A stretch of DNA of 64,000 bases. Source: Zopfochytrium polystomum (lineage: Eukaryota > Chytridiomycota > Chytridiomycetes > Chytridiales > Chytridiaceae). The stretch covers positions 248,001-312,000 of the forward strand of contig JAIVFJ010000044.1 in the NCBI GenBank assembly GCA_025765615.1, read 5' to 3'. Under the pieces are notes generated by a model. The model was not told the DNA's origin. It saw only the letters and a program-made list of their open reading frames with translations, and searched no databases. How positions within the stretch are numbered: position 1 is the stretch's first letter; every line of letters starts with the position of its first letter. The position numbers were made by a program, and so were the translations under genes. Of the stretch, positions 7,243 through 61,159 are shown piece after piece.

Positions 7243-7324
7243 GTCCTGTTGGCGGAGTGGTTAACGCGGTGCCCTGCTAAGGCATTTCCCTTTGGGAGCG
7301 CAGGTTCGAATCCTGTGCAGGACG
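7243..7324 (+). tRNA. tRNA-Ser (GCU anticodon)
   Basis: 82-nt type II tRNA. The acceptor arms GTCCTGT and GCAGGAC pair, with G as discriminator. The anticodon stem GTGCC/GGCAT encloses loop CTGCTAA, giving anticodon GCT. A variable arm (TCCC...GGGA) and a T arm (GCAGG-TTCGAAT-CCTGT) follow. There is no intron. A T-run at 7368-7374 could end Pol III transcription. Confidence 0.93.
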
Positions 7325-14559: not shown

Positions 14560-14673
14560 TGCTCTGGGTGTGAGTCAAACTCACGACCTTCGGATGTCTG
14601 TGTGGAGGTGCACCTGTGGGACCAGGTGTGTCATGTATGAGACCGACGCTTTAACCAACTAAGCCACCAGAGC
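14560..14673 (-). tRNA. tRNA-Met-like sequence with an insert after the anticodon
   Basis: On the minus strand, GCTCTGG and CCAGAGC form a perfect acceptor stem with discriminator A. The D arm GCTTAGTTGGTTAAAGC and the anticodon half TCGGT-CTCATA are typical of elongator tRNA-Met (CAT). About 40 nt then interrupt before the matching TCCGA, at the usual place of a tRNA intron. The T arm (GTGAG-TTTGA-CTCAC) has a short loop. It is either an intron-containing tRNA-Met, a tRNA pseudogene, or the head of a SINE. I favour a degenerate or tRNA-derived copy. Confidence 0.5.
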
Positions 14674-15434: not shown

Positions 15435-18400
15435 TCATCTCCCCCTTTTAGGCCTCTTCTGCAACTTGGTGGGGTACCTGGTCTTGAACTTGAGCAGAAG
15501 GTCTTGGCAGTGAGTGAGGTTTGACTCAGGTTCCCAGGTGTTGTCAGCATCTGAGTAACCTTTCCACTTGACAAGGAACTTGAGTGTCCTTCCAAACCAC
15601 TTGGCATCCAAGATTTGTTCAACCTCAAATCCCTCTTCACCTTCTCCTCAACTGGAGGAGGAGGAGGAACAACTCTGCCTGGAATGGAATTGGCCACAAA
15701 CTTCTCCAAAAGGCTGACATGGAAAACTGGGTGGATCTTCATGGATGCAGGGAGATCCAGCTTGAAGGTGACTGGATTGATTTGCTCCAAGATCTTGAAA
15801 GGTCCCAACTTGAGGTTGTCTAGCTTGGGACTTGGTCTTTTGGTCTGCAAGTTCTTCCTCAGAAGCCAAACTTGCTGACCCACACCAAGGTCATCGTCCA
15901 TTCTTTGAGTGTTGGCAAATCTTGAGGCATCTTCTTGGGCTCGCTTCAGGGTGGAGTCCAGGAAGGTGCTAATGATCTTGAGCTTATGCAAGTGTGAAGC
16001 CACAGCAGGAGCTTGGACATTGGATAGGGTCTCTTGTCCCAGAAGATCTCCTCTTGGATTGAAGCCATAGGTTGCAAAGAAAGGAGATAGCTGGGTGCTT
16101 GAGTGGAGAGAATTGTTGAGAGCAAATTCTGCCAGGGAAGGAGGGTGGGCCAATCATCCTGTTGATAGCTGACATAGCACCTCAAATACTGCTCCAGAGT
16201 CTGGTTTGTTCTTTCTGTTTGTCCATCAGTCTGAGGGTGATAAGCAGTTTACAGTTGAGACTTGATTCCAAGGGCTGCTGTGAGTGCTTTCCAAAATTGA
16301 GATCTGAACTGTGGTCCTCTTTCACTGATGATTGACTGAGGCAGCCCATGGAGCCTGAATATGTGCTGCAAAAACAAGTCTGCTGTTCCTTGTGCATCTA
16401 TATTCTCAGTGCAGGGGATGAAATGGGCCAACTTTGTCCTTCTGCAGATGACAACAAGGATAGAGTCAAATCCATGGGATGGGGGCAGTTTCACAATGAA
16501 GTCCATGGATATTGATGACCAAGGGCTGATGGCAATTGGGAGGGGCTCCAGAAGTCCATAGGGCTTGTGTCTGCTGGATTTGTTTCTTTGACAGGTTTCA
16601 CAGCTGCTGACATAGTTCTTGATGTACTTCCTCATGCCTGGCCAGTAGAAGTCTCTGGAAACAAGCTCATATGTCTTGTGCTCTCCTGGGTGTCCAGCTG
16701 TTGCTGCATCATGCCTTGTCTTGAGTATCTCAAGTTTTTCCTCTTCTTGGCTGATTTGAATCTTGTGAGGCTTGGGTTCTTGGAAATAGCACGGGCCCAC
16801 ACACTGTCAGGAAGCAATGAAAGGTGTGTCTTGGATGGTGGGGTTAAACCATCTCCCCCTTCAGGTGCAAGGTCTGTTCTTCTTGACAGGGCATCAGCCA
16901 CAGTGTTAAGGTGGCCAGGAGAATAGCACAGCTTAAAGTCATACTCAGAGAGCAGTTCAGCCCACCTGGCATGCCTCTGCTTGAGCAACCTCCTTGCCCT
17001 GAAGAAGGTGAGGTTCTTGTGATCAGAATAGACAGAGATGCCTTTAGAACCAGCCAAGTAGTGTCTCCAGAATTTGAATGCTTCCACAATTGCAAGCAAC
17101 TCCTTGTCATGGGCTGTGTAGTTACACTCAGCACCGTTCAGCTTCCTGGAGTAATATGCCACTGGATGCAGAGGAGCAGAGGGGTCCTGAGAGCTTGGCT
17201 GGGACAGAACAGCACCAAGGGCATAGTCTGAGGCATCAGTTTCCAAGGTGAAGGGAAGCAAGGGATCCACATGCTTAAGGAGTTGTGCACTTGTGGTTGC
17301 TGTCTTAAGAGCTAGCCAGGCTTGCTCTGCTGCTGGGGTCCATTCAAACTTGGTGGTCTTCTTGGTGAGATCAGTGAGAGGCTTGGCTATGGCAGAATAG
17401 TTGGCAATGAAGGTTCTGTAGAAGTTGCAAAATCCAAGGAAGCTTTGAACATCCTTGATGGAATTTGGAGCCTTCCATTCAAGAATAGTTTGGATCTTGT
17501 CTGGTGCCATGGAGATCCCTTTGTCAGACACAATGAACCCCAAAAACTCAATGGAGGTCTTGTGGAATTCACACTTCTCCAGCTTTGCATAGAGATGATG
17601 CTGTCTGAGTCTCTCCAAGACAGTCTTGACATGTCCCATATGGCTTGCAGTGTCGGACAAAAATTCCAGGATATCATCCAGGTAGACAATGACAAAAAGG
17701 TCCAGAATATCCCTGAAGATGTCATTCATCATGCCTTGGAAATAGCTGGCGCATTGGTAAGTCCAAAGGGCATGACCAAGTACTCAAAGTGACTGTATTT
17801 GCATCTGAAGGCAGTCTTCCATTGATCCTGGGGCTTAATTCTGACCAAATTGTAGGCACCTCTGAGGTCAATCTTGGAAAATATTCTTGCATGGCTCAGT
17901 TTGTCCAGTAATTCAGAGATGAGAGGCAGTGGATAGCGGTTCTTGACTGTCATCTCATTGAGATCTCTGTAGTCCATGCAGGGTCTCAGTCCCCCATCCT
18001 TCTTCTTGACAAAAACGATGGGAGCTCCAGCTGGTGACTTGGAAGGTTGGATGAATCCCTTGTTCAGCATTTCTTCAATGTATTCTTGGAGAGCCTTGGC
18101 TTCTGGTGGAGAGAGGTGGTACAGTGGCTTGAAAGGTGGGCTGCAAGTTTCATCCTTGAGTGGGATTTCACAGTCATAAGCCCTCTGAGCTGGTAGCAGG
18201 TCTGCCTTGGTCTTGGAAAACACATCAGCATAAGGGAGATATTCTTTTGGTAGCTTGGATGCCAGCAAAAGGTCTGATGGGTCCAAGTTCCTGTGCTCTT
18301 CAGCAGTGGGGCATGAATTCTTGACTGGGAACTGTGATTCTTGAATCTTTGACTGAGAGTTCTGTTCTTGGCAAAGACTGTGAGCTGTGGAACTTGAATC

Positions 18401-19017
18401 TTGAATGTGGACTGTGAACTGTGGTACTTGAATCTTGACTGTGAACTGTGAACTGTGGAACTTGAGTCTTGGCTGGCTGTTCCAATTGGTGGAGGTTGGA
18501 CTTGACCAGTGACCCAATCAATGGCAGGGTTCTGGGCTTGCAGCCATGGTAATCCCAGGATGACAGAGAATGTGGGTGAGCCAAGATCCAATACTTCCAG
18601 GTTGACCATGGATGGTGGAAAGCCTTGGATGTGGAGGTTTAGCTTGGTTTCATGTCTGATTTCCTTGAACAGAGCATGATTGGCAAAGTGGACCTTGAGG
18701 GGTGTGGATTTCTTGATGGTGGGAATGGCACAAGACTTGGCAAGGGTGGCATCAATGATGTTGCAGGATGATCCAGAGTCGATAAGGGCCTTGGTTGTGA
18801 TGATTGACTTGGGTGAGAGTTGAATCTTGACATCCATGGTGAGTTGGTGGGGCTTGGAATCTGAGGTGTTTGTGGTGCTGGTGGTGGTGATGAAACAGGG
18901 GCAGCTTGGAGGAGGGTCCAGGGAATTGCCCCTCAGTGAGCCTGGACCTGGGAGTTTGGGTGCTTCTTCCTTGGGCAGTCCTTGACAGCATGCTCCTTGG
19001 AGCCACAGTAAAAACAC
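15435..19017 (-). pseudogene. pol: Gypsy pol with chromodomain, broken by frameshifts and a stop
   Basis: Pol opens in the -1 frame relative to gag. In order: aspartic protease (ALIDSGSSCNII), reverse transcriptase ([27 protein letters not shown], then YLDDIL), RNase H (LETDASDYALGAVL), integrase zinc finger (HPGEHKTYELV, CETCQRN), integrase core ([19 protein letters not shown]) and a C-terminal chromodomain (FLVKWKGYSDADNTWEPE). Breaks: a frame change in a degenerate repeat at about 18300-18500; one base missing near 17745, just before YLDD; a TAA at about 16252 before TAYHPQTDG; and a frame change near 16150. The chromodomain stop (15437-15435) abuts the LTR. Chromodomains of this class direct integration to marked chromatin. 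Confidence 0.9.
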
Positions 19018-19856
19018 AGTCCCTGCTGGGCCCTCCTTGTTTTCTCCTCTTGGCTCAGAGGACCCTTAGGAAGTGTCTCAACTGCATCCACTTGCATGGG
19101 TTCAGGAACTGTAAGAGCTTGAGGGACTGGGGTAGGTCTTGATGTAGTTCCTACTTGTCTTTGCTTCAGCCTCTTGGAGTAGAGTCTGTTGTCAATCTTG
19201 ATGGCAAGGAGAATGTACTCTTCCAAGGTCTCAGGGATGTGCAGAGACTGGGAGAGCATGTCTTGGATAGACTCATGGAGACCATCATGGTACAGCTCCA
19301 TCAGAGCTGCATCATTGTATCCAGAGTCTCTGGCTAGTTGCTTGAATTGGTTGGTGTAGGCCACACAAGATTGCTTTCCTTGCTTGATATGCTTGAGCTT
19401 GGATCTTGCTGTCCAAGATGCGTAGGGGTCACCAAAGGTAGCTTCCAGCCCCTCCCAGAGCTCTTGCAGGGTGGTGGGTGTGCTTGGGAGAGATCGGTAC
19501 CATGATTGAGCTTGACCAGACAGGAGGGTGCTTGTGAAAAGAACCTTGACTTGCTCACTGGGAAATCTTGAAGGTTGGAGAAGGATGACATTCTCCACAG
19601 TGGCCATAAAGTTCCTGAGGTCTTTGGCCAGCCCAGTGAACTTGTCAGGGCTGGGAACCTTGGGCTCTCTTGCTTGGTTGGCTTGGGGCAGGGGAAGAGC
19701 TTGATGTTCTTTTTGGTGAAGTTGTTGTTGAAGCTGGTGCTGCTGGTGAAGGACTTGTTCTTGAAGTTGGTGTGTCTGTCTTGAAAGGGCTTGCAATTGG
19801 TCCATCAAGGCTTGGAAGGCAGTTGCATCAGGGAAGGTGTTGTTTGGGTCAGACAT
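18933..19856 (-). CDS. gag: Gypsy Gag with zinc knuckle
   Basis: 307 aa, intact. A Gln-rich coiled N-terminus (MSDPNNTFPDATAFQALMDQ) precedes a retrotransposon gag domain (LQELWEGLEATFGDP, YTNQFKQLARDSGY) and a CCHC zinc knuckle (CFYCGSKEHAVKDC). Gag packages the element's RNA in virus-like particles. The 3' end overlaps the start of pol by about 85 bp in a -1 arrangement, so pol probably needed programmed frameshifting. Confidence 0.92.
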   Translation of the reverse strand: MSDPNNTFPDATAFQALMDQLQALSRQTHQLQEQVLHQQHQLQQQLHQKEHQALPLPQANQAREPKVPSPDKFTGLAKDLRNFMATVENVILLQPSRFPSEQVKVLFTSTLLSGQAQSWYRSLPSTPTTLQELWEGLEATFGDPYASWTARSKLKHIKQGKQSCVAYTNQFKQLARDSGYNDAALMELYHDGLHESIQDMLSQSLHIPETLEEYILLAIKIDNRLYSKRLKQRQVGTTSRPTPVPQALTVPEPMQVDAVETLPKGPLSQEEKTRRAQQGLCFYCGSKEHAVKDCPRKKHPNSQVQAH

Positions 19857-49540: not shown

Positions 49541-49665
49541 AACAAACTGCCCTTGTCTGGAGGGACAACGAAGTCAATGAAGGGCATTTAACGGGGAAAA
49601 AAAAAAATTAAAAAAAAAAATTGGAAAATTATCCGGGTCAGCTGACTTGTCACAAATAACACATT

Positions 49666-50563
49666 ATGTCGGTCAGCGATCATCGCCCCTCATGGCGTCG
49701 CAACTTTCTTCCCACGTACACACGGTTCGCGTCTCCGCTTCACGTTGCATTCCCTTTTCCTCCTCAGCCGGGCAAGAGAGTGATTATCGGCCCTGATCCG
49801 ATCCCAGATGCGGATGACGCTTCTCGCGAAGCAACCTTTTTGAACGTCCAAGCAATCCAACGTCTTGATACGGTGAACTGCCTTTGGGACGCATGCACGG
49901 TTCTCTGTGGATACATGATCGCGCACGCCAACCAGATTTTCGATCGATGCTCTTTGGGATCAAGGAACAGGTTCACAGTGGTTGAGATTGGAAGCGGTTG
50001 TGGGGTTCTGGGAATGGTTGCTGAGGAATGTCTTCAATCGCACGCGAGAACAAGGTCGGGAACCCCTGAAGTGGTGGTCGTCATGACAGAGATTGAATCC
50101 GAGATTGACGTTTTGAAGCAAACTGTTTCTCTCAACAAAGAAGGTAGTGTTTTTATATGTTCTGCGCCATGGAATTTACACGTTCATCTGTTCAGATCCA
50201 ACGCACCTTTTGGTTGAACCTCTTCCTTGGGGATCTGCTAGTCACCTGGATCGCTTGAGAGAAAAAGTTGGAGGCGGAACGCAACCGGACGAGCCTTGGG
50301 TGAACCTGATTTTGGCGACGGACATTGTTTACGAGCTGCAGCATTTTGACTTGTTGGTCGACACAATTGGGAGACTTTGCCCGCGAAATTCGTCGACAAG
50401 GCTCCTGATGGCTATGGAGAGACGATGGAGTGATATCACGCGTTTTTGGTGGGAAGATGTTTCGAAGCAGGGTTGGAAGTGGGAAATTGTTCCCAAAGGC
50501 GAGCGACGGGAGTGGTGGGAGGAAGTCGAAGAAATCGATGTTATTTGGATGTGGCGGTTATAA
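49666..50563 (+). CDS. METTL21-type protein lysine methyltransferase
   Basis: Two exons (49666-50143, 50196-50563; 52-nt intron) join in phase to 281 aa. Motif I reads VVEIGSGCGVLGM (about 105-117). LLVEPLPWG and LILATDIVYELQHFD follow; the D-x-x-Y (DIVY) signature is typical of the methyltransferase-16 (METTL21/FAM86) group, which transfers methyl groups from S-adenosylmethionine to lysines of protein substrates. The N-terminal Trp/Pro-rich segment (NCLWDACTVLCGYM) fits this family. The substrate cannot be told. Its stop is only 32 bp from the stop of the converging TIR-LRR gene. Confidence 0.85.
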
Positions 50564-50595: not shown

Positions 50596-53015
50596 CTACA
50601 GACAGTCCACATACTGGAGCTTACTTAGTTTGGTCATCCATAACGGCGATATTCCAGGGTTATTACCGATACCGATATCTACTTTCACGTTTTGCAGCAC
50701 GTTGTACAACTGCTCCGCACCAGCACTGGTTATGTCACACCGAACCACAAACAGTGCCGTAAGTCCAACCCCATCTTTAACAAAGAATGGGATAATGTTT
50801 CCCAGCCCAACATCGCCGATAGCATTCTCCGAAATATCAAGGGTTTTGAGCTTCACGCCATTCATAGATATACCTTCGAGGAGCGTCGACAAAACACGAG
50901 GAAATACGGTGCAGCCAACCAGATATAATTCCGTCAAGGTATCACAGTGCGAGATTCCCGATGCCAGTACCATCATTACACGAGGATCGCACAATTGTAT
51001 TCCATCAAGGCGTAAGACACGAAGGGACTTGAGGCCTTTCTCGAGTGCAGTTGAAAGTGCCTCCATTTGCTTGTACGATTGCAACATTTCATTCCGCGCA
51101 AGGCCAAGTTCTTCCAATGTTCTATTCGTCTGCAATTGCTTTAGACCTTCTGAGGACAAGTCGCAACTGGCGATATCAATGGCCTTGACCGTCTCGTTGC
51201 TACTCAATGCGGTTCCAAAGTTATCTCCCTGCCGAATATTGTTGTTTCCGACACGAAGTTCGACAAGTTTCGTCTCATTCAACACATTCGCAATATCCAG
51301 TCCCCCTTGACAAAGATTATTTTCGGAAATATCAAGAAATTCCAGAGAAGTGCGAGGAAGAATTTTTGCAGCGCTACGAGCACCATCCTCTCCAATAAGA
51401 TTTCTGCGAAGATTAACTTTCTTAATAGGGACCGATTCCAGTGCGGCGAATATAGAGTCTGCGCCCGCATCTTGGATACAATTGTCACTTAAGTCGAGCT
51501 CGGTTAATCCTATAGCTGAATCATCGTTTTCGGAAAGACTTTTTGCCAGGCGATGAACATCCTTATCACAGAGCTTATTTCCGGAAAGAATCAAGTTCTT
51601 CAAATTTGAATTATACTGAAGAGATGCACCAATTCCGGACAGTTCAAACGTTAAGCCTTTGCTTTTAAGATCTGCAAAATCGAGTTACTGCCAGTAACTG
51701 AAACTGATACTTACTGATCGTCAGTGTCACCCAATTTGGGTTAAAGCGCACTGAATCAACCAAAATTTCGAATTCTTTGGTGGAAGCGGGCGCGAAATCA
51801 GCCTTTTCCACGCACCAGAGGTTGCCCGTTTTTTCTAATTCTTTGTAGAGTTCTTCTCTTTTTTTGTTGCGAGCGGAGAAGTTCTTAAGGGAATCTTCGC
51901 AGTGAGTAAGTAGATCCCGTGTATCAAAGGGTTCCGGGCAGACGAATGCTGTTTCACAACAATCAACACGAGTGGATAGCCGAACAGTTCAAACAATCTC
52001 ACCTTGAATTCGGCAAATAGCATCAAACAGAGCCTTGCACCTGCTTGAGGGGGTCTCGCTGGATCTAATGTCGTCAACTTTGGCCCCGATGAAAACTGCG
52101 TCAAAAATAAGAGTGTGCTGAATCGTTTTTCGAAAGACCACTCTTACTCGGGGTAACGATACACTTGTTGAACCTCTGAGCAATGAGGGACGTTTCCCAT
52201 TGACGGCGAAGATATTCATTACCCGCAGCGGGGTCACGAAGTGCTTCCAGAGCGGCTGGAGTAATAAGAAGGATCAAGACCTTGCTTCTTTTCATATCTA
52301 CAATTTCGTGGTCCTATAAACAGGATCAATCCAAAGCCAACTCCGACTGAACCTACTGGTCCCCACGAGTCAGCCACTGTTTCGAACGGTTTAGCATTTG
52401 AACGTACACCCGGCAGTGTCGTCATAACATGCTCCGGATTAAGAAATTTCTTCATCATTGAGAGTTTTAATCGATAGTGCAACTCTGATGCCAGCTTATG
52501 ATCTTTCTCGCTTCGATCATGACATATGAAGTAGTCATTTGAGTATTGGGAGTCATTATCTGGCCAGTCACGAAGAGCATCTTCAGTCGAAACCGGGGCT
52601 GCAAATTCACCCGACTTTTCGATATTGCGTTGCTGCAGTTCAATTTTTGCCTGTTGCCAGGAATTGATACATACACACCAAGGAGTGAACAAGCAATTAG
52701 ATACCTTTCGCAAGAACTGCAGGATTTCTTCTGCCTGGTTGATTGGTATCGGTGTTTCAGAAATTTGACGCCATCGGGTGAGACGTGTTTCGTGACGGAA
52801 ATTTACATACAAACCTCTTTGACAGCCGCCTTGTAATTAACCCGCGCATCCTCGATGATGCCCATCAAACATGTCAGATCTTCCGCGGACGAAGTGCTGA
52901 CTGAAAACTGATCGAAGGGCAACAAGGATGGCTCTCGGCAGACTGGAGCCGCGGCAAGTGAAGCGGGGTCGTTTGTTGTGGTCGGTGGCGCCACCGTGGA
53001 AGGTCCTCGCATCAT
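50596..53015 (-). CDS. TIR-LRR protein A
   Basis: Seven exons (53015-52815, 52734-52705, 52650-52357, 52313-52148, 52095-52003, 51948-51715, 51671-50596) join in phase to 697 aa; introns are 29-110 nt. A short N-terminal helical region (EEILQFLRKAKIELQQR) leads into a TIR domain: DYFICHDRSEKDHKLA, KRSKVLILLITPAAL, LRRQWETSL, then TPIFIGAKVD across an intron. Gln occupies the position that is Glu in protein B (LLLEWETAL), aligned with the NADase glutamate. A linker and about ten RNI-like leucine-rich repeats follow (LTELDLSDNCIQDAGA, LEFLDISENNL). No NB-ARC or NACHT module lies between. Head to head with TIR-LRR B. Likely a non-self sensor or partner; function is inferred. Confidence 0.82.
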
Positions 53016-53492
53016 TATGTATGTAATTTTTTTTTTTTTTTAATATTGCCCATTTCATTGAAAGTTGGACAACTCCCGTGGTCGTTCTGTCCACACACTT
53101 GTCAGCGACACACTGGTTGTTTTTGAAAAGGAAAAAAAAGGACTTGTCAGTGGATTGGGCTTGGCAGCCACATCTGTCTGCATCCTGTGTCGGGGAAACT
53201 GGTTCAACGTCGGGGAAAACTGGTCGCGGAAATTTTCAGCCACAGCACGAATATGCCCCCGCGTGTATGTTTATTGAAAGAGCAACACCGCTCCTGAAGG
53301 CCAAATTTCAACAGCACGCAATAAAACTATATTTCCAGAAAAGGAAGAAAAGTTTTGATGATTTCTTCGTGCCTTCGAGGTTCGCCAGAAGATGCGGTCG
53401 CTCCTGCTGTCGCTCTGGGCGGGGGCCCATCGCGCACCTCTCGACGCCAACAACTTCTCTCGTGCTTCGGCACCGCCGATCATGAAGACTTG
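53016..53492. promoter_or_regulatory. Bidirectional promoter region of the TIR-LRR pair
   Basis: 477 bp between the two divergent start codons, so both genes are probably driven from here. It contains a poly-T tract (53028-53041) and repeated GGGGAAAACTGGT(C/T)-like motifs near 53190-53225. No core element is certain. Confidence 0.5.
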
Positions 53493-55947
53493 ATGCCTAC
53501 GCCCACTATCCCAGTGCATGCTCAGTCCCAGATTCTTTCTTTCTCGAGCTCGCAACGCAGTAGCAAGGCTCCTGATACCTTAAATGTTTCGTCGGTGGTG
53601 GAGGAGATTCAGAAAGACAGTCAGTGGCGATTGGATCAGGTTCGTTCGTCACCCTAACTCTCATTCAAGAGTCAGTTGACCTACTGCAAAACTTTGGGCG
53701 AGCAGCTTCGATCACTGAAAGAGTACTTAACCGGGGTATGTGCTCACACTTGACGTTCTCCTGGGTTGGACTTACTGGTTAGCCAGGCAGCACACCACAA
53801 AAAAGGGCAAGAGGTTGTAAGAATCTTTTGATTACATCCATATTAACGTTTCCGATTATAAGGAAAGTCAACCCGACAATGAGGAAGACGCCGAGATAAA
53901 TGCCTTGAAGAAATGGCCACTCTCGGACGGAGACTACGCGTACGACGTGTTTATTTCCCACCGAGTAGTCCCAGAGCAAGAGCTGGCAATGCAGCTTTAT
54001 TTTCGACTCAACGAAGCCCTGCTCACCAATCTTATTCTTGAAAGGCAAGGTGCGGCGTCTGCCACTAAACTTGAGAATGGCCCAAGGCTCGAGCGAGTAT
54101 TTTGGGATCATGACTCCCTTATTGTTGGAGAGGTACTGTAACATTTTTTCGGACGTGCGCTGAAACGACATTGTAAGGACTGGCGAAAGGGTTTTGTTAA
54201 TGGACTAAAGAAATCGCGGCTGGTGGTACTGCTCATTTCAGAAGCATCCACACCGCGTATGAAGACGTCCCACATCGAAACTGATAACCTTCTTCTTGAG
54301 TGGGAAACGGCATTGATGGCAGCCAAGCACCATAGATGCGCTATCTTTCCAGGTTCACTGAAAAAAATTTTGACGAATTTATCTAAAATATTTCAAGTCT
54401 TCATTAAGGGTGCAGAAAAGCTCATCAAACCGGAGACGCTCCCCTGTGCTCGCCCAAAGACTGTCTATGGCACACAAAGCTGCAGTCTCAGCGCAAGATC
54501 GATTCTCAATAAAGTTCTGTCTTTCGACCCCAAAGGTACAACTTCACTTTGCTCAAACTCACTCAACGTGGCATGATCCCAGATTGTGTTCACTACGACG
54601 GTACAAACATAGATGAAATCATAAGTCAGTGTTTGCTTAAGGTTAAATCGTTTTCATCTCCCAATGAATCTGCCATTCGGCTTCGGCGCGAGGATCAATT
54701 TGCTGAATTAATACCCACTGATGTTGATGATATGCCCAATTGGAACAAGGAGGAACTACGTCGTCACTTGTCACCCACGCAGTTCCTTGTAGTCGCTGAG
54801 AGCCTTCCATTCAACGAATTCTGGAAACGACTTATCCTGTGTATGTTGACGGTTCCACGTTTTCTTTTGTATTTATGTTTCATCCCAAGCTTTTGATATC
54901 TCACAATGCAAGGAGTATGTGAAAAGCTTTGGTCAGTCGTTGCGGAAGAACAAGACTCTGATTCAGCTGGACTTATCTGGCAATGTAATTGGAGATAATG
55001 GACTTTCATCGCTCATCGAAGGACTTATTGGTGACCCACCCGCCTCTCTACAAGTGTTGAAGCTCAGTTCGAATTCTATTACAATTGATGGATTGAAAGG
55101 AATATTTGAAAGATTGCTTCCGAAAGTGCCAATTAAACGGCTCGGATTAAAAAACAATTTGATAGGAAAAACCGCGAAGGAAAGCGATTTGGTCATGCGT
55201 AATTCGCTACCGTCGACGTCACTCGAATATTTGGACATATCTTTAAACAAGGATGCATATCTGTCTCTAGACTATACAAATCTTACTGGTTTGCGGGCAG
55301 GAAACAACGACTATCCATTTGGACGGAATTACCTATCTGCCCTGAAAGGAAATGCATCACTGAAATCCCTAGAGGTCGCATCCTGTGGAATTGATGGCAA
55401 CTATGAGTGCCTGGTTGGAAACACGTGTCTAACTCGACTTGACCTTAGCAACAATGAAATGCTGGCACTCCCGGAACATTTTTCAAGCCTAATGACCGGA
55501 ATTTCGGGAGCTACAGCATTGGAAATTCTTAAGATCAATGATGTTGACTTGGCCAACGTTATACACCTGGCTGAACATGGAGTATCTCAGCATCCGACGC
55601 TGCGAGATTTGTATTTGAGTAATTGCCAACTCAGCGCCGCGGCACTATCTGATCTGATGAGTGCAATCGCGGACTCAGAAGTGCAGCTTCTGGACGTTTC
55701 CAAAAACACATTTGGTGACGAAGGGATCGAGCCGATTCGAAATGCTGCGGGGAATGCAAAATCGACGCTTTGGGATATTTACGTCGGCTTATGCAATATC
55801 ACGGGCGAGGGTGCGATTCGATTGATATCTGCAATGAAAACTTCTGGAAAAGACTTCCAGATTACGGTGTACAGGGCTGATGCTTGGCCTGACGAAGTCT
55901 CCAAAGTTGCAGGAGTTGTTATATTGGAAGACGATGAGTATTTGTAA
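53493..55947 (+). CDS. TIR-LRR protein B
   Basis: Seven exons (53493-53639, 53670-53735, 53863-54132, 54178-54352, 54398-54535, 54583-54840, 54890-55947) join in phase to 703 aa. The exon count, phases and domain order match protein A. N-terminal helical segment (QSQLTYCKTLGEQLRSLKEY), then TIR: AYDVFISHRVVPEQELA, RVFWDHDSLIVGE, DWRKGFVNGLKKSRLVVLLIS, DNLLLEWETAL (retained Glu), FPVFIKGAEKLI. The LRR region runs about 350 residues (LIQLDLSGNVIGDNG, LEYLDISLN, LTRLDLSNNEML) and ends VVILEDDEYL. No nucleotide-binding domain. The first exon's start is the least certain part; the second intron (127 nt) is longer than the rest. Confidence 0.82.
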
Positions 55948-56716: not shown

Positions 56717-59700
56717 CTAACCCACTACTTTACCCTTGCGCACCATGCGCGCCCTCCATGCAGCGCCATGCGCTGCATTCTTCTCCTTGTCCTTGGTCCG
56801 TTTCTGAAGGAAGTGATCTTCGCGGCGTTTTGTCCTAATTGTTCGTACATGCTCAATCAACTTGTTATTTTCGGCTGGTGGTCCCTTGCTCGAGTCAACA
56901 AGTCCAAGTAGTATTCGGCCTTCGAAAACCATATCGTGTCCATGTGGCTTGGTGAGGAGATCAGCAAGCTGATCAAAGGAGGGGACGTGATCAACCTGCA
57001 CAAGACCTTCCTCAACAAGCGACTGGATGTGGTGGTAGTGAAGTCGAATGTGCTTGGAGCGGTCTGTATGAAGATCGTTCACCGTCATATGGATTGTTGG
57101 TGTGTTGTCCTCATAAGCAGTCAGTGGTAGCTTGAGGGGCATCTTGACCGACAGGTGAAGGTTGTTGATAGCCTCAAGCTCCCGACCAAGTTCACTGAGG
57201 GCAATATACTCTGCTGCTGTTGATGATGTGGGGATCGTTGACGAACGTGTCGACTTCCAGCCAATTGCTCCCCCTGCTAGCAGCACAAGGTATGCTATCT
57301 GCGAGCGAGAGTCATGGCGGGAGTTGAATGATGCTTCTGCGTATCCGACAGGTTGAGGGTTGCTGTCTGCACTGTAGCGAAGTCCAACTGTGGCAGTGGC
57401 CTTGACATACCCAACAACATCCAACAACTCACGCCAATGCTGTCGGCATGGATCCTGGGCAAAGGAGCCAAGTAGACTGACACTGAGTGCAAGGTCTGGT
57501 CTGGTTGATGTTGCTGCGTAGTTGAGGCTGCCAATCACATGGAGATACTCAGTGCTGTTGACACTCTCTTCGTCAGGGTCGATAGATTCTGGCACGCGAG
57601 GGGTGAGCTTGGAGGTAGTCTTAAGTGGTGCGCCTCGAGGCCTCACAGCGCCGTGTTCAGCCTCAAAGCGAGATAGGAAGTTTCGGATGAAGTTAGCTTG
57701 GTGAATGATTGTGAAGTTTGAATCACGGATAACTTCCATTGAGAGAACGTAGGTGAGCTTCCCAAGCTCCCGAAGCTTGAACTCCCCCTTGAGGTCAGCA
57801 ATCGCATCCTTGATAGCAGCAGTGTGACTGAACAAGGGGAGGTCATCAACATAGGTGAGGATGAAGCAAATTCCATGCTGGTTCTGCCGCCAGAACAAGC
57901 ATGGGTCTGCCCGACTCTGCTGGAATCCCTTCAACTGTAGGTGTGCTGCAAGGCGCAGGTACCAAGTCCGACCTGATTGCTTCAGCCTGTACAATCCCTT
58001 CCGGAGTAACCAAACCATTCCAGGGAGGATTGGTACACCAGATGGTGGCGCCATGAAGATGGCGACATCGAGTATTCCGTACAGGTAGGCTGAGGAGATG
58101 TCGATCATCTCCATGTCCCAGCCATACAGGGTGCTGAGGGCAATCATCCATCGGAGAGTGTTACCTCGAATTACCGGCGAGTATGTCAGAGTGAAGTCAA
58201 CGCCAGGCTGCTGTGTGAAACCACGAGCAACAAGACTCGCGCGAAATCGTTCGATGGTGCCGTCGGGTTTGAACTTCAGCTTGTATACCCATTTGCAACT
58301 CACAATGTTTGTGTTGGGTGGAGCTGTGGCTTCGATGAATACGCCCATGCTGCGGAGCATGCTCAGTTCGTACTCTTCAGCCTCTCTCCACTCTTTGGCA
58401 AAGGGTGAAGCCATGGCCTCCTCGTGCGTCAGCGGATCCTTGTATGTGTCAGGTGACACTCGAACTGTGTTGGAGTTGACATTGAAAGCGAAGAGTGGTC
58501 TGTCTTCGTCGTCTGAGTCTGACATGTACACAGATTGATCGTCGTTGTCGTCAGAGTCCTCATATGGTCCGCATGCAAATAACGCATCTGGCACGTCAGG
58601 AGCACTCTCAGCAGCAGGTGGGTCACTTGGCATGGCTGGTTCTGCTGCATCACTGGGCCTTCCACCCCTAGCGATGTGAGTGTCCCAGGCTCGCGTGGGC
58701 GCAGAGCCCCACCCCACGGGGCTCTCACCATCCACGGCCACCGGAACCTCTGCGCTGGACTGAGATGCCACGTCTACAAAGCCGCTAGGCCCACCGCCCC
58801 TCGCGCCGCTGGAAGGACGGTCCCCAACCACACCATTGGTGCCCTGTGCTATGGCTCCCTGCATGTGTGATGGTTTTGGTGGGATGAGGTTGTGTTAATT
58901 GTTTTGATGTGTTTTGAAGAGGTAAAGGGTATAGAGAATTGTTTGTTAGTATGGTGATTCTCAGGGTTACTCACCAGTTGGTTGTTGGTTGGGTTCTTTC
59001 TTGGTCGTCCACGTTTCTTCTTTGGTGGTGGTAGGTCAGGGTCAATGCTGGGGGCCACTACTGTTTCTGGTGATGCAGTTTGTGGTGGTGGTTCAGGCAG
59101 TGGCTCTGCAGGTGGTGGTTGTGGAGCTAGTGACGACTTTGGTGGTCGCCCCCGCTTCTTCAGTGTTGGCACTGTCTGTGCTTTGTCGTGCCCCACCTTC
59201 TGCTGCTGCTTCTGCACTTTTGCTGCAGTGCCTGCTGGAGAATCTGCTCTGCATGAATGACTGATTGGACTGCCTTTTCACATGCTGGGTGACTGAGGTC
59301 TGAAAGTGGTGGGAGGTTAACGCTGATGCTCTCAATCCCCCCCCTCACAGCGTGAACCCCAGTAAAAGGAGGGAACTTGTCTTCAAAGAAGACAATGTCA
59401 TGGTAGCGCTGGTAGATGATGCGCTGCTCTTGGAGCTCCCACAACACCAAAACTGATCGTGAAACAGAGCCGAGGTAGACAGCTGGATGGCCCTTGGGGT
59501 CAAGTTTCTTGCGAAGAGTTGGGCTGACCCGGTAGAAGCACTTGGAACCAAAAGTTCGAAAGTGGCTAACTTGTGGAGGTACGTGGTGCCGGCCCTCGTG
59601 CGGTGAGAAGATGCCTCGCTGTACATTTGGGAGGCAGTTCTTGATCTGCGAGGCTTGCCGATACGCATAGCTCCAAAAGGTGAGGGGAACATTGGGAGCG

Positions 59701-60752
59701 CCAAGGAGAAGAGAGCGAGTCATGTCTGTCACAATCTGGATGTGGCGTTCTGCAACCGAATTCATCTGCGGGGTTCGCGATGGCGAAGGTTTGAGCTGAA
59801 TGCCACGCGAATCGCAGAAGGACTTGAACGTCTGGTTGAAGTTTTCTTTTCCTCGATCCAGGCGGATGATCTGGATTTTTCGTCCCTCAGTTTTCTCAAG
59901 GAAAAGGATTAACTTAATAAGGAATGGTAAGGCGTTGCTCTTTCGGGGGATGGGCTCATTCCATGAATAGCGGGTGCTCTCGCAAACAACAGTGACTGCG
60001 TAGTTGCAGCCGTCAAAGGAGGTGATGGGGATTGAATTGACATCAACGTTGAGGGTGTGTGCAAAGGGAATTGGCTCATCAGGACGGGCTGTGAAATTCT
60101 TCTGGCGCATCTTGGCTGCAACGCAGATCTCGCACTTGGGGATGTGAGAGGTGTTGAGTAGTGGAAGGTCTGCTGTCGTTCGGTGGTGAAGCATGTAGCC
60201 TAGGCGCTGGAAGCCAACATGACCCAGTGCGCGATGCAGCCGCTCAACCTCAGCGATGCGAAGTTGTTCTGCTTTGGTAGCGACTGGTGATGGGCTGTCA
60301 GGTGATGGAAAGGTCTCCTGATGAACCATTGCAATGGTAGCAGCAGCTGTGTGACTGAGTCGATGAAGCTTTGAATTCTTGGTGACGAGGAAGTGAAGTC
60401 CTGAGCGTTTGACACAGCGGCCAATGGGGGACTCGTCACTAGTTTTCAAGATAACAGCAGGGCGGCCTTTGAACTTAGAAAAGAAAAACTTCCCATCTTC
60501 TTGAAGGCCGTTTGTGGCGAGGAGACTGTAAAGAGCGCTTGGAGCGTAGCAGGCTTCCTTGATTACAATCTCCACACTGTTTGGAAGAGGGATTCTTGCT
60601 GGTCCAACGCCTTTGATTTTGAGCGGGGTGGAGTCTTTGTCAATGGTTCCAACAGACGAGGTGCGTTCGGTGTAGGATGTGAAAAGGTGGGCGTCTTTGA
60701 GAATGGTCTTGACACAGCCAGAGTCGACAACGATGGGTGATTCCTTGAACAT
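56717..60752 (-). CDS. pol: Copia Pol: protease, integrase, AT-hook linker, RT, RNase H
   Basis: From 60752: a protease motif (VVDSGCVKTI), the GAG-pre-integrase zinc finger (LHRALGHVGFQRL, CEICVAAKM), integrase core acidic residues (LNVDVNS, IIRLDRGKE, NSVAERHIQ), then a linker. Near 59210 one base is out of frame, after which two AT-hooks (KKRGRPPK, KKRGRPRK) follow. A GT-AG intron with strong sites (58974-58859, 116 nt) joins NNQL to GAIAQG in phase. Reverse transcriptase (EMIDISSAYLYG, ILTYVDDLPLF) and RNase H (GYAEASFNSRHDS) run to the stop at 56717. Only the single frameshift near 59210 blocks a continuous Pol; it could be a mutation or a programmed event. Confidence 0.85.
58859..58974 (-). 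other. Putative intron inside copia pol
   Basis: CTG|GTGAGTAACC and ACATGCAG|GGAGCC bracket 116 nt that contain stops in every reading, and both exons are in phase 0. The frame continues cleanly across it. Confidence 0.65.
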
Positions 60753-61159
60753 GGTGGGTGACGATGATGAAAGGGCGAGGTGTTTGGGGACATGAGGTGC
60801 TGGTTGGAAGTTAGAGGTCTGCTTTCGACGTGCCTGAGGTGGGTGCCTCGGGCCAACTAAAAATCCGACGAATACTCCCCAGGGTCGCTCCTGCCGGTCT
60901 CGCTATCGTCAATAGATGGCACGTCACTGGTGCTGCCTGTGGCGATAAGTGCGACTGGCTTGTCCCGTTTCCTCATTATGCAGTGTTTTGCAAAGTGGTT
61001 CTCCTTCCCACAATGGTGACATAGCACTGATTTCCCCAGCGGTGCAACTCCTTGTCGCTGATCCTGAGCTGTAGCGCCTGGGGTGTTGGCCTCAGGTGCT
61101 GCACCATGTGCAGCTCGATTTTCTGCTCGTCTTTGAGTTCGGGAGGTGTGGTGTCCACG

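What the first reader, a model, noticed from the sequence alone, without database searches (positions are those of the whole stretch)
50596..55947. Head-to-head pair of TIR-LRR genes with no nucleotide-binding domain
Two paralogues of 697 and 703 aa share a seven-exon layout, an N-terminal helix, a TIR domain and about ten RNI-type LRRs, and they diverge from a 477-bp shared promoter. TIR joined directly to LRRs without NB-ARC/NACHT is rare outside animal Toll-like receptors (which have a membrane pass) and some plant forms. I see no membrane segment. Divergent receptor pairs are known in plants. I know of no described fungal counterpart, but I could not search.
Basis: partly seen in the sequence, partly recalled or inferred. 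Interest (0 to 1): 0.87.

Follow-up and report, generated by a model that had tools for sequence, protein, structure and literature searches.

The report
Paired fungal TIR-LRR receptor genes
A water-living fungus carries two back-to-back genes for a kind of immune-sensor-like protein not expected in fungi, and one of the two seems to have a switched-off signalling part, as in some paired disease-resistance genes of plants.

Summary
Real, with corrections. The window is Zopfochytrium polystomum (Chytridiales). Two divergent genes at 50596-55947 encode a TIR domain joined directly to RNI-type leucine-rich repeats; no Walker A motif, NACHT/NB-ARC match or membrane helix was found. Gene B is annotated at NCBI (745 aa); gene A (697 aa) was not among the hits of three protein searches. 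The architecture recurs in Obelidium mucronatum, Chytriomyces hyalinus and a third Zopfochytrium gene (contig C38). The genome has at least 142 other TIR places, 45 of them just upstream of a NACHT match.

B keeps the glutamate aligned with SARM1's catalytic E642, as do 29 of 30 chytrid TIRs compared; gene A alone has glutamine, and its TIR is eroded while its LRR is as conserved as B's and its frame is open. In plants, TIRs lacking this glutamate mostly belong to the sensor member of genomic receptor pairs. Best reading: an NB-less sensor/executor pair; the mechanism is inferred, not shown. Passages of fungal reviews and a 2026 TIR atlas describe LRR receptors as absent and TIRs as nearly absent in fungi.

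The parts
50596..53015 (-). Gene A: TIR-like plus LRR protein, 697 aa; exons 53015-52815, 52734-52705, 52650-52357, 52313-52148, 52095-52003, 51948-51715, 51671-50596
   Evidence: GT-AG splice model, open frame, paralogue of B; LRR_6 57.5 bits; TIR region matches a profile of six kin TIRs, E 5e-24; no RNA evidence; not among the hits
52003..52650 (-). Gene A degenerate TIR region (residues about 100-264; exons 3 to 5)
   Evidence: hmmsearch alignment to residues 100-264; Pfam TIR_2 not matched at E 1; identity to kin TIRs 25-34% against 43-46% for B
52200..52202 (-). Gene A codon CAA (Gln213) at the slot of the TIR catalytic glutamate
   Evidence: E in 29 of 30 rows, Q in gene A alone
50596..51671 (-). 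Gene A LRR exon, 12 strands of a beta-alpha solenoid
   Evidence: AlphaFold2 of window:50599-51669:- (357 residues), mean pLDDT 80.7, pTM 0.82
53016..53357 (.). Shared intergenic stretch between the two start codons (342 bp; to 53492, 477 bp, if the second ATG of B is used)
   Evidence: promoter function not tested
53358..55947 (+). Gene B: TIR plus LRR protein (NCBI DFJ73DRAFT_832181, 745 aa); exons 53358-53639, 53676 (NCBI 53706)-53735, 53787-53816 (NCBI 53813), 53863-54132, 54178-54352, 54398-54535, 54583-54840, 54890-55947
   Evidence: the NCBI exon ends are my reading of the protein P0001 on the DNA
53863..54500 (+). Gene B TIR domain, intact core (P0001 residues about 120-270)
   Evidence: TIR_2 29.6 bits whole protein, 34.0 for the cut-out region; AlphaFold2 secondary structure; the family profile hits SARM1 in the PDB, E 1.2e-11
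54298..54300 (+). Gene B codon GAG, Glu255 of my model = Glu244 of P0001, aligned with SARM1 E642
54890..55947 (+). Gene B LRR exon (RNI/ribonuclease-inhibitor type solenoid)

Best explanation
The two genes encode a cytosolic, nucleotide-binding-domain-free receptor pair. The LRR solenoid of each protein is the sensing and regulating surface. The TIR of B is the output enzyme, probably an NAD+ hydrolase of the SARM1/plant/bacterial kind, which becomes active when TIRs are brought together. Protein A has kept its LRR but lost the catalytic glutamate and much of the TIR core, so it most likely acts as the non-signalling partner (sensor, brake or scaffold) that binds B through LRR, helix and/or TIR contacts and is made from the same promoter region so that the two stay balanced. 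Activation of B would deplete NAD+ or make an ADP-ribose signal, ending in growth arrest or cell death, or would feed the genome's TIR-NACHT set. Shown by sequence: architecture, absence of a detectable NB domain and membrane pass, family in three genera, conserved glutamate in B, its loss in A, asymmetric TIR erosion in A. Inferred: NADase activity, heteromer, shared regulation, immune or cell-death role.
For: Architecture and no NB/TM found. Family present in both Chytridiales families seen: Obelidium P0002 (34% identity over 81% of B, both domains in its Pfam list), Chytriomyces P0090 (40% over P0001 residues 120-400, both domains), Zopfochytrium C38 (TIR_2 37.1 and LRR_6 49.9 bits). SARM1-type TIR: 17 of the 32 PDB sequences matched at E 10 or better are SARM1 and head the list, and the Glu of DWVHKE (position 642 in the 724-residue chain 7knq_A, whose match starts at 563) aligns with B's Glu. 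That slot is E in 29 of 30 rows, Q only in A. A's TIR is 25-34% identical to four kin against 43-46% for B to three of them, while its LRR is 27-30% identical to Obelidium and Chytriomyces, B's 29%; A's LRR branch is no longer than B's (2.19 against 3.51) but its TIR branches are very long. A's open frame is not neutral drift: 0 of 200 simulated neutral runs kept it free of stops at 80% identity, nor 0 of 200 at 60% or 50%. Precedent read in passages: plant TIRs lacking the glutamate are mostly sensor-type TNLs that work through a genomically paired TNL, and RRS1 lacks it (PMC7282519); CHS3-CSA1 head-to-head pairs form heterodimers and depend on CSA1's glutamate (PMC11298796).
Against: No expression, binding or enzyme data. 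Whether the divergent pair itself (as against the architecture) is conserved in Obelidium or Chytriomyces could not be tested, as their contigs are not held. A was not among the hits of three protein searches, so it may be unannotated. B's TIR_2 score is only 1.6 bits over the cut-off and A has none. B's model is moderate (mean pLDDT 69.4, pTM 0.57): residues 1-81 are under 50, so the N-terminal helix as an oligomerisation module is a guess, and so are 176-188 and 197-205, where a BB loop would lie. The other TIR-LRR loci are not known to be paired, so the family can exist without a partner. Without an NB domain, how ligand binding would drive TIR assembly is unexplained.
Confidence: 0.5

Rival explanations
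1. Only B is a working TIR-LRR receptor; A is an inverted duplicate that is losing its signalling half, and the head-to-head layout is an accident of the duplication.
For: A's TIR lost the catalytic Glu and much of its core; A was not among the hits; the other TIR-LRR loci are not known to be paired.
Against: A's 697-codon frame is fully open with canonical introns, and 0 of 200 neutral runs reach that; its LRR is as conserved as B's.
Confidence: 0.22
2. TIR-LRR proteins are adaptors or regulators for the genome's TIR-NACHT NLRs: the TIR joins heterotypic TIR assemblies and the LRR tunes them. (Not exclusive of the best reading.)
For: 45 of 142 other TIR places lie 373-729 bp upstream of a NACHT match on the same strand; the C344 locus is TIR + NACHT-type + WD40; one such NLR lies about 23 kb away in this window.
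Against: 20 of the 22 other TIRs in the tree, 11 of them with a NACHT match nearby, fall on one side of a supported branch (98/95), apart from the TIR-LRR ones; separate lineages need not interact, though nothing forbids it.
Confidence: 0.2
3. The proteins are not immune receptors but serve NAD metabolism or programmed cell death in development (zoospore or sporangium), like SARM1 in axons. (Overlaps with the best reading in its chemistry.)
For: The nearest solved TIR is SARM1; RNI-type LRRs also occur in structural and housekeeping proteins among the fold matches (CARMIL, RanGAP, axonemal proteins).
Against: Strong divergence of the LRR (24-38% among five proteins), several loci in one genome and pairing fit recognition better than housekeeping; this is a judgement, not a test.
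Confidence: 0.15
4. Gene-model artefact: true transcripts include a nucleotide-binding domain or separate the TIR from the LRR.
For: No RNA evidence was available here.
Against: The modelled introns are 36-80 bp and cannot hide a domain; NCBI's B model and the Obelidium and Chytriomyces proteins have the same domain order; no Walker A.
Confidence: 0.03

Closest known systems
Plant paired TNLs (RPS4/RRS1, CSA1/CHS3)
   Same: Genomically paired receptors with TIR and LRR; RRS1's TIR lacks the catalytic glutamate (PMC7282519, passages), CHS3-CSA1 is head-to-head with catalysis attributed to CSA1 (PMC11298796, passages)
   Different: Plant proteins have a central NB-ARC with a P-loop that is needed for oligomerisation; here there is none; LRRs here are RNI type
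Animal Toll-like receptors
   Same: TIR and LRR in one protein without an NB domain
   Different: Order LRR-TM-TIR with a membrane pass (PMC6040629, passage); here TIR is N-terminal of the LRR and no TM was found; no TLR chain was among the 32 PDB sequences matched by the TIR profile
SARM1 / tir-1 NADase
   Same: Closest solved TIR by profile (E 1.2e-11) with the catalytic glutamate aligned
   Different: SARM1 is controlled by ARM and SAM domains (ARM recalled); here an LRR
Fungal NLRs (HET- or TIR-NACHT-WD40/TPR/ANK)
   Same: TIR-clan effector domain on the N-terminal side, repeats at the C-terminus; the same genome has a TIR-NACHT set
   Different: No NACHT/NB-ARC; LRRs instead, which the 2025 review PMC12881547 says were not identified in the analysed fungal NLRs (passage)
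Vertebrate NLRP LRRs and ribonuclease inhibitor
   Different: Only the repeat fold is shared

Membership tests
TIR domain (Pfam STIR clan) | Profile match above curated cut-off | tested here: met
   B 29.6 bits against cut-off 28; C38 gene 37.1; gene A not matched alone at E 1
TIR NADase | Catalytic glutamate at the SARM1 E642 slot | tested here: met
   B, Obelidium, Chytriomyces, C38, C144, C21 and C3 have E; gene A has Q, so A does not meet it
TIR NADase | NAD+ cleavage | not testable with these tools
   needs protein
LRR protein, RNI type | Tandem beta-alpha leucine-rich repeats, horseshoe fold | tested here: met
   LRR_6 matches, AlphaFold2 of both, fold search for B
NLR / TNL | Central NB-ARC or NACHT with Walker A | tested here: not met
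Toll-like receptor | Single transmembrane helix between LRR and TIR | tested here: not met
   max 19-residue hydropathy 1.56 (A), 1.12 (B); TIR precedes LRR
Paired sensor/executor receptors (works like) | Head-to-head adjacent genes, one with a catalytically intact and one with a catalytically lost TIR | tested here: met
   catalysis judged by the glutamate alone
Paired sensor/executor receptors (works like) | Co-expression and physical hetero-complex | not testable with these tools
   needs RNA and protein work
SARM1 orthologue | ARM-SAM-SAM-TIR architecture | tested here: not met
   LRR and no ARM or SAM match in A or B; the architecture itself is recalled

The most novel reading that the evidence does not exclude
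Chytrid fungi evolved their own head-to-head sensor/executor TIR receptor pair, parallel to plant RPS4/RRS1, but with no nucleotide-binding switch at all: an LRR-gated TIR enzyme (B) controlled by a partner (A) whose TIR has lost its catalytic residue. This would be a minimal two-protein TIR immune switch and would show that pairing with loss of catalysis is a repeated evolutionary outcome independent of the NB-ARC resistosome.
Probability: 0.35. Interest if true: 0.93.

Novelty: new variant of a known kind. Interest (0 to 1): 0.86.

Why it matters
A 2010 survey that held 49 fungi reported no TIR (PF01582) and no LRR-with-NACHT proteins (PMC2939053), a 2025 review says that LRRs were not identified in fungal NLRs (PMC12881547), and a 2026 TIR atlas found almost no fungal TIRs, those it found all from one chytrid (PMC13142454) (passages of each). 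Here one chytrid genome holds well over a hundred TIR places, a TIR-LRR family shared by three genera, and a pair whose asymmetry mirrors plant paired receptors. It makes testable whether LRR-based intracellular sensing exists in fungi, whether an NB domain is needed to control a TIR enzyme, and whether loss of catalysis in one partner is a general consequence of pairing.

Tried and rejected
NB domain hidden in introns or linker: rejected (modelled introns 36-80 bp; no Walker A; no Pfam match). Membrane receptor: rejected on hydropathy. TLR descent: not supported, since the profile search of the PDB listed SARM1, tir-1, bacterial and plant TIRs and one TIR-STING but no TLR among 32 sequences at E 10; an absence, not a disproof. 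A whole-model PDB search for the TIR fold led nowhere because the LRR fills the list, so the TIR fold rests on Pfam, the SARM1 profile match and AlphaFold2 secondary structure; I did not hand in the TIR alone or spliced A whole for folding, as neither is clearly among the sequences the tool takes, and folded A's single LRR exon instead. TIR-LRR TIRs as one clade: not shown (the tree needs two changes because two long-branched rows, L020 and L022, join Obelidium; holding the eight together is not rejected, p-AU 0.113). LRRs of the C144 and C21 loci: of six single exons Pfam matched none to an LRR (one chance-level FANCL match), and the joined C144 pieces gave 21.7 bits, under the cut-off 23.4; they are called look-alikes only, and the part of the C3 locus downstream of the TIR and its linker was not examined. 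The TIR exon of the TIR-NACHT locus C344 was not matched by Pfam at E 0.1; it is called TIR because the chytrid TIR profile matches it at 64 bits. PADLOC: one weak match (PDC-S66, 22.7 bits) for B, none for Obelidium and Chytriomyces. Repeats in the shared intergenic stretch: only short two- or three-copy families and poly-T/poly-A pairs, no conclusion. Limits: protein searches scored only about 7,990 candidates and missed the Chytriomyces protein that one search found, so the family census is incomplete. The 142 TIR places are exon-level places from two searches, without the window's pair; they are not a gene count, later searches add a few more, and two of the 47 TIR-NACHT joins were 3.8-4.0 kb apart and are left out of the 45. 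Of the 22 non-LRR rows in the tree only 11 have a NACHT match nearby.
Full report
WHAT IS THERE. The window is part of contig C44 (376,797 bases) of an 80.16 Mb genome. Gene B matches DFJ73DRAFT_832181 of Zopfochytrium polystomum at 98% identity on a contig of the same length, so the organism is this chytrid (Chytridiales, Chytridiaceae). Gene A runs on the minus strand from 53015 to 50596, gene B on the plus strand from 53358 (or 53493) to 55947. A splices to 697 aa over 7 exons with introns of 43-80 bp; B splices to 756 aa in my model and is 745 aa at NCBI, over 8 exons with introns of 36-51 bp in my model. They are paralogues (E 2e-58, 29% identity).

IT IS A FAMILY. Three searches of 5.8 billion proteins gave two further proteins with both domains in their Pfam lists: Obelidium mucronatum (632 aa) and Chytriomyces hyalinus (626 aa, partial), both Chytriomycetaceae. 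The other hits carry LRRs but no TIR in their Pfam lists: many are animal or metagenomic NACHT-LRR proteins, some LRR only. In the same genome, contig C38 holds a third TIR-LRR gene: my model of 896 residues over 12 exons has TIR_2 at 37.1 bits and LRR_6 at 49.9, both over cut-off; one of its introns has a GC donor and its 3' end is uncertain. Loci on C144, C21 and C3 have a closely related TIR (47-51% identity to B over 59-61 residues) and the same post-TIR stretch; C144 and C21 have LRR-like exons by eye that Pfam does not confirm, and C3 was not examined further. Two intron positions, GE|DW in phase 0 (GP|DH in A) and P|VFI in phase 1, are shared by A, B and C38, and by eye by C144 and C21; they are absent from the TIR of the C344 TIR-NACHT gene (my reading).

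THE GENOME AROUND IT. A TIR_2 search of the genome gives 85 matches and a search with B 65, five of them in A and B themselves and one an LRR-only hit. Merged, without the window's pair, these are 142 places; 45 lie 373-729 bp upstream of one of 86 NACHT matches on the same strand, and 3 lie upstream of an NB-ARC match. No LRR_6 match lies within 15 kb of any of the 142; but that search found only 19 LRR_6 places and missed C38's LRR, so it is insensitive. One examined NACHT gene (C344) is TIR + NACHT-type + WD40 (Pfam alone does not see its TIR exon), and this window itself holds another.

THE ASYMMETRY. A profile of seven chytrid TIR regions matches SARM1 first among PDB chains (E 1.2e-11). 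In the 724-residue chain 7knq_A the match begins at residue 563, which puts the glutamate of DWVHKE at 642, the residue required for NAD+ hydrolysis (PMC7282519, passage). It aligns with Glu244 of P0001. In a set of 30 chytrid TIRs (8 of TIR-LRR or look-alike type; 22 others, 21 of them found because they resembled B) this slot is E in 29 and Q in gene A alone. A's TIR as a whole is 25-34% identical to B, Obelidium, Chytriomyces and C38, where B is 43-46% identical to the last three; but A's LRR is 27% and 30% identical to Obelidium and Chytriomyces, B's 29% and 29%. Five-row trees agree: in the LRR tree A's branch (2.19) is shorter than B's (3.51); in the tree of TIR plus linker A's branch is 10 and B's 0. 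These trees are small, long-branched and saturated (C38's LRR branch is 10 too), so only the direction counts. A's frame has survived: of 200 simulated neutral runs to 80% identity none stayed free of stops. So A has kept its LRR and lost its catalytic TIR.

MECHANISM. In plants, TIRs that lack the glutamate are described as mostly sensor-type TNLs that act through a genomically paired, signal-competent TNL, and RRS1 lacks it (PMC7282519, passages). Head-to-head pairs such as CHS3-CSA1 form resting heterodimers and depend on CSA1's catalytic glutamate (PMC11298796, passages). The chytrid pair has the same three marks - divergent genes, TIR and LRR in both, the glutamate left in one - but no P-loop. 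I therefore propose B as executor and A as partner. This rests on analogy; no interaction, activity or expression was measured, and the pair, as opposed to the architecture, was seen in one genome only. The rivals overlap in part with this reading, so the odds given need not sum to one.

NOVELTY. Passages read: PMC2939053 (49 fungi among 101 eukaryotes: no TIR PF01582, no LRR with NACHT), PMC4986451 (an architecture, by its context NOD-LRR, described as lost in fungi; HET related to TIR), PMC9815663 (other repeats in place of LRR in fungal NLRs; TIR reported in NLRs of Chytridiomycota), PMC12881547 (2025 review: no LRRs identified), PMC9153377 (TIR architectures; fungi represented by HET), PMC13142454 (abstract, passages and one section of a 2026 preprint: almost zero fungal TIRs in EukProt, all from Rhizoclosmatium globosum; InterPro STIR clan without fungal entries; a very small number reported before). 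Also looked at, passages only: PMC4102429, PMC7075850, PMC6040629, PMC7285305, PMC11291939. TIRs in chytrid NLRs are thus known to exist; a fungal TIR-LRR without an NB domain, and a fungal TIR pair with one partner lacking the glutamate, were not met in searches, of which I read listings and the passages named. The library holds open-licence papers only.

VERDICT. Real, unusual, and more interesting than reported because of the asymmetric pair. A new variant of a known kind: TIR-LRR sensing and paired TIR receptors are known, their NB-less fungal form is not among what I could find.

Noticed in passing
window 23204 to about 28070 (-): A TIR-NACHT-WD40 NLR gene lies in the same window, about 23 kb from the pair: WD40 by Pfam, NACHT by the genome search, the TIR read by eye and hit by the C38 query; its N-terminus looks like a PB1 domain by eye, not tested.
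   Followed up: partly
own genome G000, for example C344:26500-33999 (L041): TIR-NACHT expansion: 45 of 142 other TIR places sit 373-729 bp upstream of a NACHT match on the same strand, in a kingdom where TIRs are described as nearly absent.
   Followed up: partly
own genome C52:275000-280999 (L042): The strongest TIR_2 match of the genome lies just upstream of a Sel1-repeat ORF (seven matched stretches): a possible TIR-Sel1 architecture.
   Followed up: no
own genome C250 and C550: Three TIR places are followed by NB-ARC rather than NACHT matches, a further TIR architecture in one fungus.
   Followed up: no
own genome C241 and C60: Four TIR_2 matches on C241 (within about 53 kb) and three on C60 (within about 2.3 kb) suggest TIR arrays or split genes.
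   Followed up: no
window 56717-60902 (-): Copia-like retroelement ORFs next to gene B: the 725-aa ORF looks like a Copia reverse transcriptase by eye; the 580-aa ORF matches integrase-related Pfam families.
   Followed up: partly
window 16632-19065 (-): Retroelement ORFs with reverse transcriptase, RNase H and aspartyl protease matches.
   Followed up: no
window about 49660-50563 (+): Lysine methyltransferase (Methyltransf_16) gene ending about 30 bp from the 3' end of gene A, tail to tail (its second exon read by eye).
   Followed up: no
window 7243-7324 (+) and 14560-14673 (-): Two Rfam tRNA matches; the second is 114 bases long, was not called by ARAGORN and may hold an intron.
   Followed up: no
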